From Fusobacterium massiliense (GTDB lineage: Bacteria > Fusobacteriota > Fusobacteriia > Fusobacteriales > Fusobacteriaceae): a DNA stretch of 64,000 nt. The notes under the pieces were generated by a model, which saw only the letters and a list, made by a program, of their open reading frames with translations, did no database searches and was not told the DNA's origin. Below are positions 2,188 through 25,435 of the stretch, piece by piece. The translations under genes were made by a program, and so were the position numbers. Location: the NCBI RefSeq assembly GCF_900095705.1, contig NZ_LT608326.1:1-64000 (forward strand), written 5' to 3'. Every line of letters starts with the position of its first letter. Within the stretch, counting starts at the first letter, position 1.

Positions 2188-3942
2188 TTATATTTCTTTT
2201 GTATACTCTTTTAAAAATTCAATTTCTTTTTTTGTTAAATAAGGACTTAATTTCTCAAAAACTTCCTTATGGTACAAATTTAATTGTTTCTTTTCTTCTT
2301 TTGTCAAAAGTGACTTTACTATTCCATCTAAGTCAATTGGAGCATAAGTTATTGTTTCAAATTCCATAAACTTACCATGCTCTGTTTCACAGCACTCTCT
2401 AACTAAAAGTTCATTTTCTATTCTTATTCCATGACTATTTTGGATATATGCTCCAGGCTCATTAGTAACTATCATTCCATTTTCTAGTCTTTGTGGATTA
2501 TATTGCATTCTAATTCCATGAGGTCCTTCGTGAACATTTAAAACATGCCCTACTCCATGACCTGTTCCACATTTATAATCAATACCTACATTCCATAAGA
2601 ATTGTCTTGCTAAAATATCTAAGTTTGTTCCCGTTGCACCAAATAAAAACTTTGCTCTTGTTAATGCCAACATTCCTTTCAACACTAATGTATTATCTAC
2701 CCTTTTTTGTCTTGCAACTTTTCCTAAGAAAAAAGTTCTTGTAATATCAGTTGTTCCTTTTAAATAAGTTCCTCCCGAATCTAATAAATAAACTCCATCT
2801 TTTATTTGAACTTCATTTTCTTTGTTAGATTTATAATGCATCATAGCAGCATTGGCTCCAAAAGCTGAAATTGAATTGAAACTTAAATCTATAAAACCTT
2901 CTATTTTTTTTCTTAATGAATCTATTTTTTGTTCAGCAGAATATTCTGTTATTTTTTCCTTTTTATAATTATTTTTTAGCCAATACATAAATTTCACAAC
3001 AGCTACTCCATCTTGTATGTGAATTTCTTTTGTATTTTTTATTTCTATTTCATTTTTATGTGATTTCAAATATGTACTAGGGTTCATTGAAGAAATTATT
3101 TCATTTTTTGATATAGCTTCGAAAATTCCATAACTTATCTTATTGAAATCCACTAAAATATTCCCCTTCAATTTCTTTATATCTTCGAAGAACATAAAGT
3201 ATTCTTTTATTTCTATTTTATTATCTTTAAAATATTTATTACATTTTTTATCTAATTTAGAGTTATCTATGTATAATACTGACTTATCTTTTGAAATTAT
3301 TGTAAAAGAAAGAGCAACAGGATTATTTTTTATATCCTCACCTCTAAAATTATAAATCCATGCTATATCATCTAAAGTAGTTACTATATTATAGTCTGCA
3401 TTCTTACTTGAAATAATATCTCTAAGTTCTTGAATTTTATCATTGTATGACTTCCCACTATACTTATCTTCCAATATAAAAATTTTTCCATTTGGAAGGC
3501 TTTTTCTGTCTTCCCAAACTTCTGCCAACAAATCAAAATCAACAATTTTTAATTTTTTTTGACTCACAATTTCATTTACATCTGAATATGTCACGATTTT
3601 AGCATCTATACCCAATTTAGAATTTTCTTTCAATTTTGACAAAATATATTCTTTATAACTTGGAACACCTATATTGCCTTGTTTAAATAATTTTATTCCA
3701 CTTCCAGCTAATTGTTTTTCAGCTTGAATATGATATCTGCCATCTGTCCACAAACAAGCTTCATCTTTAAATATTACTAAAGTTCCAGCTGAACCTGTAA
3801 AACCAGATAAATATTCTCTTCCTTTAAAATATATATCTATATACTCACTTTCATGATAATCTGAACTTGTAACAATATAAGCATCCGCTTTATATTTCTC
3901 TAAAATTTCTTGTGCTTTTTTTATTCTATTTAAAATTTTCAT
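2188..3942 (-). CDS. Xaa-Pro aminopeptidase, M24B family
   Basis: A 584-aa cytoplasmic metallopeptidase that removes N-terminal residues preceding proline. It has the long three-domain architecture (two creatinase-type N domains, residues about 1-300, then the M24 pita-bread domain), like eukaryotic aminopeptidase P1 rather than the ~440-aa PepP of E. coli. Metal ligands are visible: two Asp in LLDSGGTYLKGTTDITRT, His in GTGHGVGHVLNVHEGP, Glu in NEPGAY, and Glu in RIENELLV. GGAGGATT precedes the ATG. It would serve peptide fermentation. An intergenic repeat separates it from the divergent flavodoxin gene. Confidence 0.93.
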   Translation of the reverse strand: MKILNRIKKAQEILEKYKADAYIVTSSDYHESEYIDIYFKGREYLSGFTGSAGTLVIFKDEACLWTDGRYHIQAEKQLAGSGIKLFKQGNIGVPSYKEYILSKLKENSKLGIDAKIVTYSDVNEIVSQKKLKIVDFDLLAEVWEDRKSLPNGKIFILEDKYSGKSYNDKIQELRDIISSKNADYNIVTTLDDIAWIYNFRGEDIKNNPVALSFTIISKDKSVLYIDNSKLDKKCNKYFKDNKIEIKEYFMFFEDIKKLKGNILVDFNKISYGIFEAISKNEIISSMNPSTYLKSHKNEIEIKNTKEIHIQDGVAVVKFMYWLKNNYKKEKITEYSAEQKIDSLRKKIEGFIDLSFNSISAFGANAAMMHYKSNKENEVQIKDGVYLLDSGGTYLKGTTDITRTFFLGKVARQKRVDNTLVLKGMLALTRAKFLFGATGTNLDILARQFLWNVGIDYKCGTGHGVGHVLNVHEGPHGIRMQYNPQRLENGMIVTNEPGAYIQNSHGIRIENELLVRECCETEHGKFMEFETITYAPIDLDGIVKSLLTKEEKKQLNLYHKEVFEKLSPYLTKKEIEFLKEYTKEI

Positions 3943-20471: not shown

Positions 20472-20570
20472 TATTGATATTTTTATGAGCTTTAGAAACT
20501 CAATTATATAAACTATCTAAGTTAATACGAATATCAAGCTTAATTTTTACTTTGCTATTTAATTTAATAA
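20472..20570 (+). repeat. Decayed copy of the subtype A repeat
   Basis: TTGATATTTTTATGAG, then CTCAATTATATAAAC, AAGTTAATACGAATATCAAG and TTTAATTTAAT align in order with the subtype A core and tail, but many paired bases are lost. Immediately left of an intact copy. Confidence 0.6.
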
Positions 20571-20571
20571 A

Positions 20572-20690
20572 CAAAGCCTCTGACGTCCGTATTAGTTCGA
20601 AGAGCCTGTATTCATTGAGCTCGTAGAACTCATACGGCTATCAAGAGACTAATTTTAATATTTAAATTTATACTTTCATATAGAATCAAA
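20572..20690 (-). repeat. Intergenic palindromic repeat, subtype A (copy 8)
   Basis: AGCCTCTGACGTCCGTATTA through GTCGTAGAACTC-type inner stem to ATCAAGAGACT, then the tail TATACTTTCATATAGAAT on the right. It lies between the divergent rpsB and HAD genes; the tail ends about 15 bases before the HAD start, so the promoter of that gene may be inside or replaced by the element. Confidence 0.88.
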
Positions 20691-20706: not shown

Positions 20707-21471
20707 ATGACTAAAACTTATCTTATAGACTTAGATGGCACTATGTATAGTGGAAATACAAATATTGATGGTGCTCGTGAATTTATTGAATATTTAAATA
20801 ACAATAACATTCCTCATATATTTCTCACTAACAATGCAACTAGAACTAAAAAACAAGCAAAAGAGCATATGCTTAATCTAGGATTTAAAAATATTAGAGA
20901 AGAGCAATTTTTTACATCAGCTATTGCTGCGGCAAAATATGTTGCTCAAAATTATTCTGAAAGAAAATGCTTTATGATAGGTGAGAGTGGACTTGAAGAA
21001 GCTCTTTTAGATGAGAATTTTGAATTTGTTGAAAATGATGCTAACTTTTTATTTGTTGGTTTAGACAAAAATGCTGATTACAAAAAATATAGCTCAGCTT
21101 TACATTGTCTTTTAAATGGTGCTACTTTTATAGCTACCAACACAGATAGACTACTTTCTAATAATGAAACTTTTGATATAGGTAATGGAGCTATTGTAAA
21201 TATGCTTGAGTATTCTTCAGGAAAAACTGCTATAAAAGTTGGAAAACCTTATGAAATAATTTTAGATATTTTTTTAAAAGAAAAAAAATTAACTAAAGAT
21301 CAAGTAATTTTAATAGGAGATAATCTAGAAACTGATATAAAATTAGGTTATGATGCTAAAATTGAAACTATAATGGTTTGTTCAGGTGTCCATACTGAAA
21401 AAGATATAGAAAAGTTAAAAATTTACCCTAATCGTGTTGTAAAAAATTTAAGAGAACTTATATCTAAATAA
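20707..21471 (+). CDS. HAD-IIA family phosphatase (NagD/YutF-like)
   Basis: A 254-aa cytosolic HAD hydrolase. Motif I is LIDLDGTMYSG (nucleophile D8, acid/base D10), motif II FLTNNATRTK, motif III Lys in AIKVGKP, motif IV ILIGDNLETDIKLGY, with the C2 cap between them, matching NagD/YutF-type p-nitrophenyl/sugar phosphatases. CGGAGGAGA precedes the ATG. The natural substrate is not predictable. The TAA stop is formed by the first bases of a repeat element, so the last codons may have changed when the element arrived. Confidence 0.9.
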   Translation: MTKTYLIDLDGTMYSGNTNIDGAREFIEYLNNNNIPHIFLTNNATRTKKQAKEHMLNLGFKNIREEQFFTSAIAAAKYVAQNYSERKCFMIGESGLEEALLDENFEFVENDANFLFVGLDKNADYKKYSSALHCLLNGATFIATNTDRLLSNNETFDIGNGAIVNMLEYSSGKTAIKVGKPYEIILDIFLKEKKLTKDQVILIGDNLETDIKLGYDAKIETIMVCSGVHTEKDIEKLKIYPNRVVKNLRELISK

Positions 21472-21595
21472 AGTCTCTTGGTCTCTTGACAGCTGTATGA
21501 GTTCTACGAGAACAATAAATACAATCTCTTCGAACTAATACGGATATCAGAGACTAATTTTCATTATTTATTTTTATACTTTCCTATAGAGTAAA
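21467..21595 (+). repeat. Intergenic palindromic repeat, subtype A (copy 9) touching a stop codon
   Basis: AAATAAAGTCTCTTG contains the HAD stop TAA; GTCTCTTG is duplicated in tandem (21473-21488). It closes at ATCAGAGACT with the tail ATACTTTCCTATAGAGTAAA. Confidence 0.88.
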
Positions 21596-21598
21596 AAA

Positions 21599-21632
21599 AC
21601 ACACAGTTAAAATTATACTGTGTGTTTTTTTA
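21599..21632. terminator. Bidirectional terminator between the HAD gene and rnpB
   Basis: ACACACAGT (21599-21607) pairs with ACTGTGTGT (21617-21625), T8 on the right and A7 on the left. It can end the HAD transcript (+) and the RNase P RNA (-). Confidence 0.92.
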
Positions 21633-21635
21633 TTT

Positions 21636-21961
21636 TGGCATTCAATAAGCCGGGTTTTGTATTTGTTAATTATTTTTCTCGAATTATAATTACTTATAAT
21701 CTCTAGCGACTTACCCTGAAAGAGAGCGAGCAACTCCTATCACTTTCCTATTTAGTCTTGCTTCAAAGGGGGTTTACCTAGCTTTTTTAGTCTCCTAAAA
21801 AACTGGTGGTCTCTTACACCACCTTTTCACCCTTACCATAATGGCGGTTTATTTTCTGTGGCACTTTCCTTAAAGTTTCCTTTAGTAGCCGTTAGCTACC
21901 CTTTTGCTCTGTGAAGCCCGGACTTTCCTCTGTAAAATACAGCAATTAACTCGAATACCAT
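21636..21961 (-). ncRNA. rnpB: RNase P RNA, bacterial class A
   Basis: On the minus strand the conserved CR-I GAGGAAAGTCCGGGCTTC, the AGGGTGAAAAGGTG segment, the ACAGAAA and AAACCC blocks and the 3' CCCGGCTTATTG are all present. P1 pairs GGTATTC (5') with GAATGCC (3'), which sets the ends. It is the catalytic RNA that matures tRNA 5' ends. It begins about 12 bases after the stop codon of the TPM-domain gene; a TAGAAT box sits in that gap but its -35 is poor. Confidence 0.95.
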
Positions 21962-22566: not shown

Positions 22567-23343
22567 TTATAAAAATTTAAACACTGGCTCACTATTAAAA
22601 ACTATAAAATTCAATCCAGTTGCTTTCAATTCTTTGACTAAAATATCAGAAAAAAAGTTTTCACTTTCATAATGTCCAAAATCTATAACACTTAAACCAG
22701 CTTCTTTTGCATCTAAAGCATCATGATAAGAAACATCTCCGGTTATAAATAAATCAATATTTTCTTTTTTAGCCTTTCTCCAATAACTCATAGCTGAACC
22801 ATTGATTAAGACAACTTTTTTTATCTCTGTATCTAAATCATTTGTAATCACTCTCAAATTTGAAATACCTAATTTTTCTTTTACAAAATCTGAATATTTT
22901 AATAACGATATTGGTGTTTTTAGTTTAAAAACTCTTCCTATTCCACAATTTTTTTCTTTATCCAAATCTAGAATTTTACTCTCTTCAATTTCTAATTTTT
23001 TTAAAACATAGTCATTCAACCCATCAATCGTAGAATCTAAATTTGTATGAATACTATAAACATTTATATCATTTTTTATTAAAGCTCTTATTTTTTTACC
23101 TAAAACAGTTTGCTCATTTATTTCCTTTATAGCTTTAAATATAATAGGATGATGAGTAATAATCATATCAACTTTTTCTTTTATTGCATTATCTATGACT
23201 TCTAAAGTTGCATCTATAGAAAACTGAATTTTTTGGACTTCTTTGTCGTAATCTCCTATTAAAAGTCCGATATTATCCCAGTCTTCAGCATTTTCTCTAG
23301 GGAATTTTTTTTCAATTATTTTTATAATTTCTCTAGTTTTCAT
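22567..23343 (-). CDS. NIF3 / GTP cyclohydrolase I type 2-like dinuclear metal protein
   Basis: 258 aa, NIF3 family: WDNIGLLIGD near the N terminus, MIITHHPIIF with paired metal-binding His, SIHTNLDS, and DFGHYESENFF at the C terminus completing the dimetal site. The family forms hexameric rings of uncertain biochemical role. The ATG overlaps the stop of the sigma-like gene (ATGA), so the two are translationally coupled, an arrangement that places it in the rpoD operon. Confidence 0.9.
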   Translation of the reverse strand: MKTREIIKIIEKKFPRENAEDWDNIGLLIGDYDKEVQKIQFSIDATLEVIDNAIKEKVDMIITHHPIIFKAIKEINEQTVLGKKIRALIKNDINVYSIHTNLDSTIDGLNDYVLKKLEIEESKILDLDKEKNCGIGRVFKLKTPISLLKYSDFVKEKLGISNLRVITNDLDTEIKKVVLINGSAMSYWRKAKKENIDLFITGDVSYHDALDAKEAGLSVIDFGHYESENFFSDILVKELKATGLNFIVFNSEPVFKFL

Positions 23344-24167
23344 AGTTCAACTCTTTCATCTACAACCGATAATTTGAAAAGTCCATCTTTTAAAAGATTA
23401 TCAAGTTCTTCTTGTTTCATATTCATGATTTTTTGAACTTCTAAAATATCTCTTTTTCTATGTCCATCTAAACCAAAGTATAGTGTCAAAGCCTGTATTT
23501 CTCTTTCCCTTAATCTATATTTTATGTTAGAATAATCAAAAAGATTTTCAACTGTTTTTTCAAGTTTTCTCATTTCTTCAATCTTTTTTTCTTCATTTTC
23601 TTTTTCAAGTTTTCTCAACTCATCTGACTTACTTTTATCTTTTAAAGATACTTTAGAATGTCCACTTTTATCTATTTCACTTTCAGCAAAATTTTTATAT
23701 CCAGCTTTTCTATAATTAGCATAGTCATCAATGTAATTAAACATTTCTCTAACTATGAAATAGTCTTTATATTTTTTAAAATCCTTATCATCATCAAATA
23801 AACTATCAGCTGTCATCATTCCTATAAAACCTTCTTGAGTTAAATCGGTGTATGATATTCCATCTTTCAACATATGTAGCCCTATTTCATAAACTTTTTT
23901 TAAATTTTTTTCAACCCTTGTTCCACAGCAATCGTCAACACCACAATCATGTTCACAAGTGCAAATGTCATCTTTTAAATTCTCCAAAGTTTCTGTTATT
24001 AATAAATCTATATACTCATATTCTATTTCTTCTTCTGTTAATTTTCTACCTTTTTGAATAGGATATAATTCCAAATTTTTAGAATGTTCTAAAACATATT
24101 TTTTCAATTCTTCAATATCTATATCTCTATTTTTTTGTAAAAAATTTTCAAACTCTAAAATTTTCAA
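23340..24167 (-). CDS. Divergent sigma-70-like protein with a cysteine cluster
   Basis: 275 aa, coded 17 bases after rpoD. Residues about 118-160 (DLTQEGFIGMMTADSLFD...KYKDYFIVREMFNYI) align with sigma region 2 of the neighbour ([20 protein letters not shown]...[11 protein letters not shown]) but lack the WW pair used to melt the -10. The C-terminal REREIQALTLYFGLDG...ILEVQKIMNMKQEELDN mirrors region 4 with a degenerate helix-turn-helix. A unique CTCEHDCGVDDCCG (about 88-101) has five Cys in the region before domain 2. A Lys/Glu helix links the halves. It could be a specialised sigma, a decoy or a metal/redox-responsive regulator of RNA polymerase; function unproven. Confidence 0.7.
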   Translation of the reverse strand: MKILEFENFLQKNRDIDIEELKKYVLEHSKNLELYPIQKGRKLTEEEIEYEYIDLLITETLENLKDDICTCEHDCGVDDCCGTRVEKNLKKVYEIGLHMLKDGISYTDLTQEGFIGMMTADSLFDDDKDFKKYKDYFIVREMFNYIDDYANYRKAGYKNFAESEIDKSGHSKVSLKDKSKSDELRKLEKENEEKKIEEMRKLEKTVENLFDYSNIKYRLREREIQALTLYFGLDGHRKRDILEVQKIMNMKQEELDNLLKDGLFKLSVVDERVEL

Positions 24168-24184
24168 AATACTCCTCCTAATTA

Positions 24185-25435
24185 TTAATCCACCTTAAAG
24201 TCTTCTAGTTTTTTCTTTCTACTTGGGTGTCTTAATTTTCTAATAGCTTTTACTTCTATTTGTCTTATTCTTTCTCTAGTAACATTGAATATTTTCCCAA
24301 CTTCTTCTAAAGTTTTTGGTGAGCTATCATCTAATCCAAATCTAAGTCTTAATACTTTTTCTTCTCTTTGACTTAAAGTTTTTAACACACTATCCAACTC
24401 TTCTCTAAGTATAGCTCTATTAGTTGCTTCATATGGACTTGTTGTTTTTTGATCTTCAACAAAATCTCCAAGCTCACTATCTTCTTCACTTCCAACTGGA
24501 GTTTCTAAAGATATAGGTTCCTGGTTCATTTCTTGTATTGCTTTAATTTTTTCAACTTCCATATTTAATCTTTCAGCTAATATTTCAGGAGTAGCATCTT
24601 TCCCAGTTTCTTGTAAATAAATTCTTGATTCTTTCTTTATTTTGTTTATTGTTTCTATCATATGAACAGGTATTCTTATTGTTCTACCTTGATCTGCTAT
24701 TGCTCTTGTTATAGCTTGTCTTATCCACCAAGTTGCATATGTTGAAAACTTATACCCTTTTGTATATTCAAACTTTTCAACTGCTTTCATCAAACCAATA
24801 TTACCTTCTTGAATTAAATCAAGAAGTTTTAATCCTCTATTTGTATGTTTTTTAGCAATACTTACGACTAATCTTAAATTCGCTTCTGTTAGTTGATTTT
24901 TTGCATACTCATCTCCATCATAAGCCCTTTTTGCAAACTCCAATTCTTGTTCATGTGATAACAATGGAACTTGTCCTATTTCCCTCAAATACATTTTTAT
25001 AGGTTCATCAACTTTTGTACTTCCACCTAAATTTAAAAGTTTTTCATCAGTAAGTTCATCTTCACTTATATCTTCAACATAGTCTGGGTTAAACTCATCA
25101 TCAAAAAAATGTTCTGTATCTTCATCAACCTTATCTTCATCTTCTTCTTCTTCATCAAGTATATCATCTTCATGTTCTATATAATCATCTGAATCTTTAT
25201 GTTCTTCTTCGTGTTCATCAAATTCATCTAATTCTTCTTCTTCATCCTCTTCTTCAAGTTGACTTTTACTTACAATTTTTCCACCAGTTTCTATTATTGT
25301 ATGTATAAGTTTTTCTATTTTTTCAATAGGAAAGTCATCTTTTAATTCTTCATTAATTTCTTCATAAGTTATCTTATCCTCTTTTGCTTTGTTAATTAAT
25401 GCACGAACTTTTTCTTTCTTTAATAATTCTTTCAT
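24185..25435 (-). CDS. rpoD: RNA polymerase primary sigma factor (sigma-70/sigma-A)
   Basis: 416 aa. Short region 1.1-like N terminus, then a very acidic stretch (about 62-125, rich in Glu/Asp). Region 1.2 begins [19 protein letters not shown]; region 2 has [39 protein letters not shown]; region 3 [13 protein letters not shown]; region 4 [26 protein letters not shown] and the recognition helix [21 protein letters not shown]. It directs transcription from the TTGACA/TATAAT promoters seen throughout the window. Second gene of dnaG-rpoD, the common order. Confidence 0.97.

What the first reader, a model, noticed from the sequence alone, without database searches (positions are those of the whole stretch)
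23340..24167. Sigma-70-like paralogue with a five-cysteine cluster encoded next to rpoD
The protein keeps recognisable regions 2 and 4 but lost the aromatic melting residues, and has CTCEHDCGVDDCC ahead of domain 2. Being translated in the same operon as the primary sigma factor and coupled to nif3, it could be a metal- or redox-responsive sigma, an RNA polymerase-binding decoy, or a structural helper.
Basis: partly seen in the sequence, partly recalled or inferred. Interest (0 to 1): 0.72.

Follow-up and report, generated by a model that had tools for sequence, protein, structure and literature searches.

The report
DNA-blind sigma-factor relative beside rpoD
Fusobacteria carry, directly downstream of the gene for their main sigma factor, a second sigma-like protein that has kept the surfaces for holding RNA polymerase but lost those for reading promoters, so it probably regulates the polymerase instead of starting transcription; the striking cysteine cluster is a local decoration, not its core feature.

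Summary
The gene (24167..23340, minus strand, TTG start, AGGAGG ribosome site) lies 17 nt after rpoD and overlaps nif3 by 4 nt (ATGA). The five cysteines in 13 residues are the densest Cys cluster among 365 ORFs in 400 kb of this genome. The cluster is not the family's feature: most relatives have 0-1 Cys, although the sister species and a second genus carry other Cys/His-rich patches. What is conserved is stranger. An orthologue sits at this locus in all 14 genera of the family. In five genera and two outgroup families it is a full, RpoD-like sigma. In one monophyletic group of eight genera (41 sequences) region 3 is deleted and promoter-reading positions have changed (31% conserved, versus 92% for core-polymerase contact positions). 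QEG of region 2.2 is invariant (41/41), whereas Arg588 of the -35-reading helix has become Glu or Asp in 38/41. dN/dS is 0.04-0.27, so this is not decay. The predicted fold is confident (pLDDT 83) and matches sigma chains. I conclude that a duplicated primary sigma became a DNA-blind, RNA-polymerase-binding regulator co-expressed with RpoD, most likely a sigma competitor. Polymerase binding is inferred, not shown. New variant of a known kind.

The parts
23340..24167 (-). sigma-like gene ('SigX' here; 275 aa, TTG start), orthologue of the gene between rpoD and nif3 throughout the family
24174..24179 (-). AGGAGG ribosome-binding site in the 17-nt gap after rpoD
   Evidence: sequence
24185..25435 (-). 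rpoD, primary sigma factor, upstream in the same apparent operon
   Evidence: TIGR02393 above cut-off
22567..23343 (-). nif3/DUF34 gene, start overlaps the SigX stop by 4 nt
   Evidence: PF01784 and TIGR00486
23976..24014 (-). region 1.2-like helix (residues 52-64)
   Evidence: alignment
23925..23963 (-). five-Cys cluster CTCEHDCGVDDCC (residues 69-81), between regions 1.2 and 2.1, the site where other sigma factors carry their non-conserved region; predicted disordered
23814..23846 (-). region 2.2 DLTQEGFIGMM (residues 108-118); QEG invariant in 41 of 41; expected contact with the beta' clamp helices
23721..23798 (-). diverged region 2.3/2.4 (residues 124-149); -10-reading residues lost
23463..23513 (-). 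region 4.1 (residues 219-235), YFGL core kept
23367..23453 (-). region 4.2 helix-turn-helix (residues 239-267), DNA-facing residues replaced, recognition helix no longer basic

Best explanation
A duplicated primary sigma factor, once a working alternative sigma at this locus, lost promoter recognition at the base of the Fusobacterium/Cetobacterium group and was kept as an RNA-polymerase-binding protein. Shown here by sequence: shared locus and ancestry, loss of region 3 and of -10 and -35 reading residues, strict retention of the region 2.2 core-binding motif and of the region 4 hydrophobic core, purifying selection. Inferred: it holds core RNA polymerase through the beta' clamp helices and the beta flap but cannot open a promoter, so it competes with RpoD (and the two small sigmas of this cell) and sets how much polymerase is free. 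Being made from the rpoD transcript would tie its dose to that of RpoD. The Cys or Cys/His patches of a few species would be accessory, perhaps tuning it by metal or redox state.
For: Same place between rpoD and nif3 in nearly all genomes of the family, all 14 genera represented. Profile comparison of reduced and full forms: 99.9% probability, 282 columns. Reduced forms are one clade in both the RpoD tree (100/99) and the protein's own tree (100/99). Core-contact positions keep residue class in 92% of cells, DNA-contact positions in 31% (position permutation p < 1e-4); Q406, E407, G408 are 41/41; R588 is E/D in 38/41. Recognition-helix net charge +5 (RpoD), +4 (full forms), -0.7 (reduced forms). 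dN/dS 0.04-0.27. AlphaFold pLDDT 82.9, pTM 0.82, and the Foldseek hits listed are almost all sigma chains of RNA polymerase entries. In F. nucleatum, FN1317 and FN1318 are reported as sigma factors with changed abundance in a proteomic comparison (PMC4234264); FN1317 fits this gene by gene order (FN1321 is AtoC-like).
Against: No binding to polymerase has been measured, and no co-fold with beta' or beta could be run. The window's own sequence is among the more diverged members (L402T, I405T, N409F). One species of the same genus, G001, has lost the gene (96 nt between rpoD and nif3), so it is dispensable there. The contact residue sets come from my knowledge of E. coli sigma70. Foldseek whole-chain TM-scores are low (0.2-0.26), as expected if domains are rearranged but not proof of placement.
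Confidence: 0.52

Rival explanations
1. It is still a promoter-reading sigma factor with an unusual specificity, like ECF sigmas that have only domains 2 and 4, perhaps with a partner protein supplying DNA contacts as in SigO-RsoA.
For: Scores above the TIGR02937 sigma cut-off; most reduced members keep one Trp and a conserved R-E-M motif at region 2.4; domain layout 2-linker-4 with region 3 missing.
Against: The recognition helix is neutral to acidic with R588 to E/D in 38/41, whereas the two other small sigmas of this genome keep Lys/Arg-rich ends; the profile is closest to primary sigma, not ECF; no conserved partner gene at the locus other than nif3.
Confidence: 0.2
2. A sigma mimic that binds a sigma regulator (anti-sigma) rather than RNA polymerase, freeing RpoD or another sigma, as PhyR does with NepR.
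For: Degenerate DNA contacts as in PhyR (PMC8103513).
Against: In PhyR the core-binding surface is degenerate too (PMC8103513); here it is the best conserved part. No receiver domain. No anti-sigma gene recognised at the locus.
Confidence: 0.1
3. A metal- or redox-responsive regulator in which the Cys cluster is the functional heart, linked to the dinuclear-metal protein Nif3.
For: Densest Cys cluster in 365 ORFs; His/Cys-rich patch at the same site in sister G002 and CSCGHDPNEEHECCG with many His in another genus; DUF34/NIF3 proposed as metal chaperone or insertase (title of PMC8469502).
Against: Cluster absent from nearly all orthologues (0-1 Cys in most), not at one position, loop disordered (pLDDT below 50 at 68-80); a GrpE-like ORF of the same genome carries a similar His/Cys patch, so such patches look like general appendages.
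Confidence: 0.12
4. A decaying gene without function.
For: Fast divergence (38% identity between two species of one genus) and loss in G001.
Against: Open frame in every orthologous locus read in full, dN/dS 0.04-0.27, new conserved motif GxGExxF in region 4, protein reported in F. nucleatum (PMC4234264).
Confidence: 0.04

Closest known systems
Primary sigma factors RpoD/SigA (sigma70 groups 1 and 2)
   Same: Homologous over regions 1.2, 2.1-2.2 and 4; locus neighbour; full-length orthologues in related genera are RpoD-like with a moderately supported region 1.1
   Different: Region 3 deleted, region 2.3/2.4 and -35 reading residues lost, acidic
T4 gp55 and gp33
   Same: gp55 binds the clamp helices through acidic residues of a sigma region 2-like fold; gp33 clamps the flap tip helix and does not by itself bind DNA (PMC7892883)
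   Different: Phage proteins, two separate chains; gp55 reads the -10-like element; gp33 is not structurally related to sigma region 4. Here one bacterial chain is homologous to sigma in both parts
PhyR sigma-like domain
   Same: Sigma fold without promoter contacts
   Different: PhyR also lost core binding and sequesters NepR; it has a receiver domain (PMC8103513)
SigO-RsoA of Bacillus subtilis
   Same: Sigma functions no longer complete in one standard chain
   Different: Split over two proteins and active in initiation (PMC8103513)

Membership tests
sigma70 family (by descent) | Sequence homology to sigma regions 2 and 4 | tested here: met
   Sigma70_r2 above Pfam cut-off in the window protein and a match (E up to 0.1) in all 41 members; profile to SigA E 7.5e-27 over regions 1.2-4
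sigma70 family (by descent) | Sigma fold | tested here: met
   AlphaFold pLDDT 82.9; nearly all listed Foldseek hits are sigma chains, probability up to 1.00, though whole-chain TM-score is 0.2-0.26
functional sigma factor | Core-binding residues of region 2.2 | tested here: met
   Q406 E407 G408 invariant in 41/41, D403 is D/E in all; binding itself not tested
functional sigma factor | -10 reading and melting residues of regions 2.3/2.4 | tested here: not met
   Positions keep class in 47% of cells vs the full forms and 30% vs RpoD; W433, Y425 and position 423 lost
functional sigma factor | -35 reading helix of region 4.2 | tested here: not met
   11% class conservation vs the full forms; R588 to E/D in 38/41; helix charge -0.7
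ECF (group 4) sigma | Closest relatives among ECF sigmas, basic recognition helix | tested here: not met
   Closest solved chains are primary sigmas; own-genome small sigmas differ at this helix
PhyR-type sigma mimic | Receiver domain and degenerate core-binding surface | tested here: not met
   Only Sigma70_r2 is found by Pfam in the window protein; core surface conserved
Cys-based metal or redox regulator | Conserved Cys ligands in orthologues | tested here: not met
   Most orthologues have 0-1 Cys
RNA polymerase core-binding competitor | Physical binding to beta' or beta | not testable with these tools
   Complex prediction not available; needs pull-down

The most novel reading that the evidence does not exclude
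Fusobacteria evolved a chromosomally encoded, DNA-blind sigma that occupies both sigma docking sites of RNA polymerase and is made in step with RpoD: a built-in competitor or hibernation factor derived from a primary sigma, for which I know of no cellular precedent, with species-specific Cys/His loops as metal or redox switches.
Probability: 0.35. Interest if true: 0.8.

Novelty: new variant of a known kind. Interest (0 to 1): 0.6.

Why it matters
Database models call this protein, in the rpoD operon of Fusobacterium and its kin, a sigma factor, yet the parts that read promoters are gone and the parts that grip RNA polymerase are kept under selection. If it is a polymerase-binding competitor, it would show how a primary sigma paralogue becomes a regulator of the polymerase, with the full forms and an intermediate genus still alive to compare, and it would be a new handle on transcription in F. 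nucleatum, where few regulators are understood.

Tried and rejected
A single-sequence scan of genome contigs with the window protein found nothing; the alignment scan worked but its pattern was short and also pulled in unrelated sigma genes of Clostridia and Proteobacteria. PADLOC gave no match, PHROGs only a general sigma family. The structure of the full-length form was poor (pLDDT 63, pTM 0.28), so no structural comparison of the two forms was made. The promoter scan over the region equals shuffled expectation (19 vs 19.1), and no terminator-like site lies between rpoD and this gene. Region 1.1 remnant: supported for full forms (hhalign E 1e-4), not directly for reduced forms against RpoD. 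Literature searches found no study of this gene beyond the proteomic mention.

Full report
Observation. The ORF 24167..23340 (minus strand) encodes 275 aa from a TTG preceded by AGGAGG, 17 nt after rpoD; its stop overlaps the nif3 start by four bases. Sigma70 region 2 is above the Pfam cut-off, TIGR02937 above its cut-off. The five Cys (69, 71, 75, 80, 81) lie between regions 1.2 and 2.1. Among 365 ORFs in 400 kb of the same genome no other reaches five Cys in a 14-residue window.

Family. Whole-genome searches of the phylum and assembly of the loci show an orthologue just upstream of nif3 in all 14 genera of this family; in nearly all it directly follows rpoD. In genus g12 about 4 kb separate rpoD from it. 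Its arrangement with nif3 is also present in families f2 and f3 (G025, G026) and in f6 (G097), though rpoD is elsewhere in G097. Organism names from one scan include Fusobacterium mortiferum and Cetobacterium. Family f4 gave no match in most genomes and in two only RpoD itself.

Two forms. In g3, g5, g7, g9, g14 and two outgroup families the protein is 329-356 aa, with intact STYATWW-type region 2.3, region 3 and region 4, about 28-35% identical to the window RpoD, with a moderately supported region 1.1: a duplicated primary-type sigma. In g1 (the window), g2, g4, g6, g8, g10, g11, g13 it is mostly 245-291 aa (one start call gives 232), and g12 is intermediate. The reduced forms are a single clade in the RpoD tree (100/99) and in the protein's own tree (100/99), so the change probably happened once there. 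G097 (f6) also looks partly reduced, perhaps independently; one genome only.

What was lost and kept. Positions were named from knowledge of E. coli sigma70. Over 41 reduced sequences, core-contact positions (region 2.2 and region 4 core) keep the residue class of the full forms in 92% of cells, DNA-contact positions in 31%. Q406, E407 and G408 are 41/41; G564 is 41/41; R588 is Glu/Asp in 38; P453 is gone; W433 is gone in all. The recognition helix falls from +5 to -0.7. A new motif, G-x-G-E-x-x-F then A-L-x-x-L-S, is conserved in its place in most members. dN/dS between close relatives is 0.04-0.27.

Structure. AlphaFold with the 41-member alignment gives pLDDT 82.9 and pTM 0.82; the Cys loop is below 50. 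Foldseek lists sigma chains almost exclusively, with low whole-chain TM, presumably because domains 2 and 4 are differently spaced.

Cysteines. Most orthologues have 0-1 Cys. The sister G002 has ECECHDHHKGHFHTH at the same site; g6 has a run of His with HECSCGHDPNEEHECCGKHH in the linker between regions 2 and 4. A GrpE-like ORF of the window genome has HEHKHGGHSCCGKHGHKH. I read these as recurrent metal-ligand-rich appendages, accessory at most.

Mechanism. The pattern (grip kept, DNA reading lost, co-expression with rpoD, selection) fits a protein that occupies RNA polymerase without initiating. T4 gp55 shows that a sigma region 2-like fold with acidic residues binds the clamp helices, and gp33 that a flap-bound protein need not bind DNA by itself (PMC7892883). 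PhyR is the contrasting case, where core binding was lost as well (PMC8103513). The genome has only four region-2 proteins: RpoD, this one and two small sigmas, so a competitor would act mainly on RpoD. Binding remains untested.

Expression. In F. nucleatum, FN1317 and FN1318 are listed among sigma factors with changed abundance (PMC4234264); equating FN1317 with this gene rests on gene order (FN1321 AtoC-like down to FN1317, as in the window) and is an inference.

Noticed in passing
22567..23343 and related loci: Nif3 is short (about 258-274 aa) in genomes with the reduced sigma, but 334-384 aa with a central insert in genomes with the full sigma; G009 (L012) is an exception with a long Nif3 and a reduced sigma.
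   Followed up: partly
L093 (G001), 2828-2924: A species of the window's own genus has lost the sigma-like gene; rpoD and nif3 are 96 nt apart.
   Followed up: yes
L002 (G002), 2388-3160: nif3 of the sister species matches in two different frames, a possible frameshift or sequencing error.
   Followed up: no
G000:C5:247680-248279 (L166): GrpE-like ORF (near a dnaJ-like ORF) with a His/Cys patch HEHKHGGHSCCGKHGHKH, similar in kind to the patches in the sigma-like proteins.
   Followed up: no
20560..20652 and 21478..21570: 93-nt inverted repeat, 81% complementary, flanking a HAD-type phosphatase gene (20707..21471).
   Followed up: no
21631..21961 (-): RNase P RNA, class A (Rfam RF00010, 284 bits).
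   Followed up: yes
L174 3358-4233 (G097): A sigma-like gene next to nif3 in another family also shows weakened promoter-reading residues, perhaps an independent case.
   Followed up: partly
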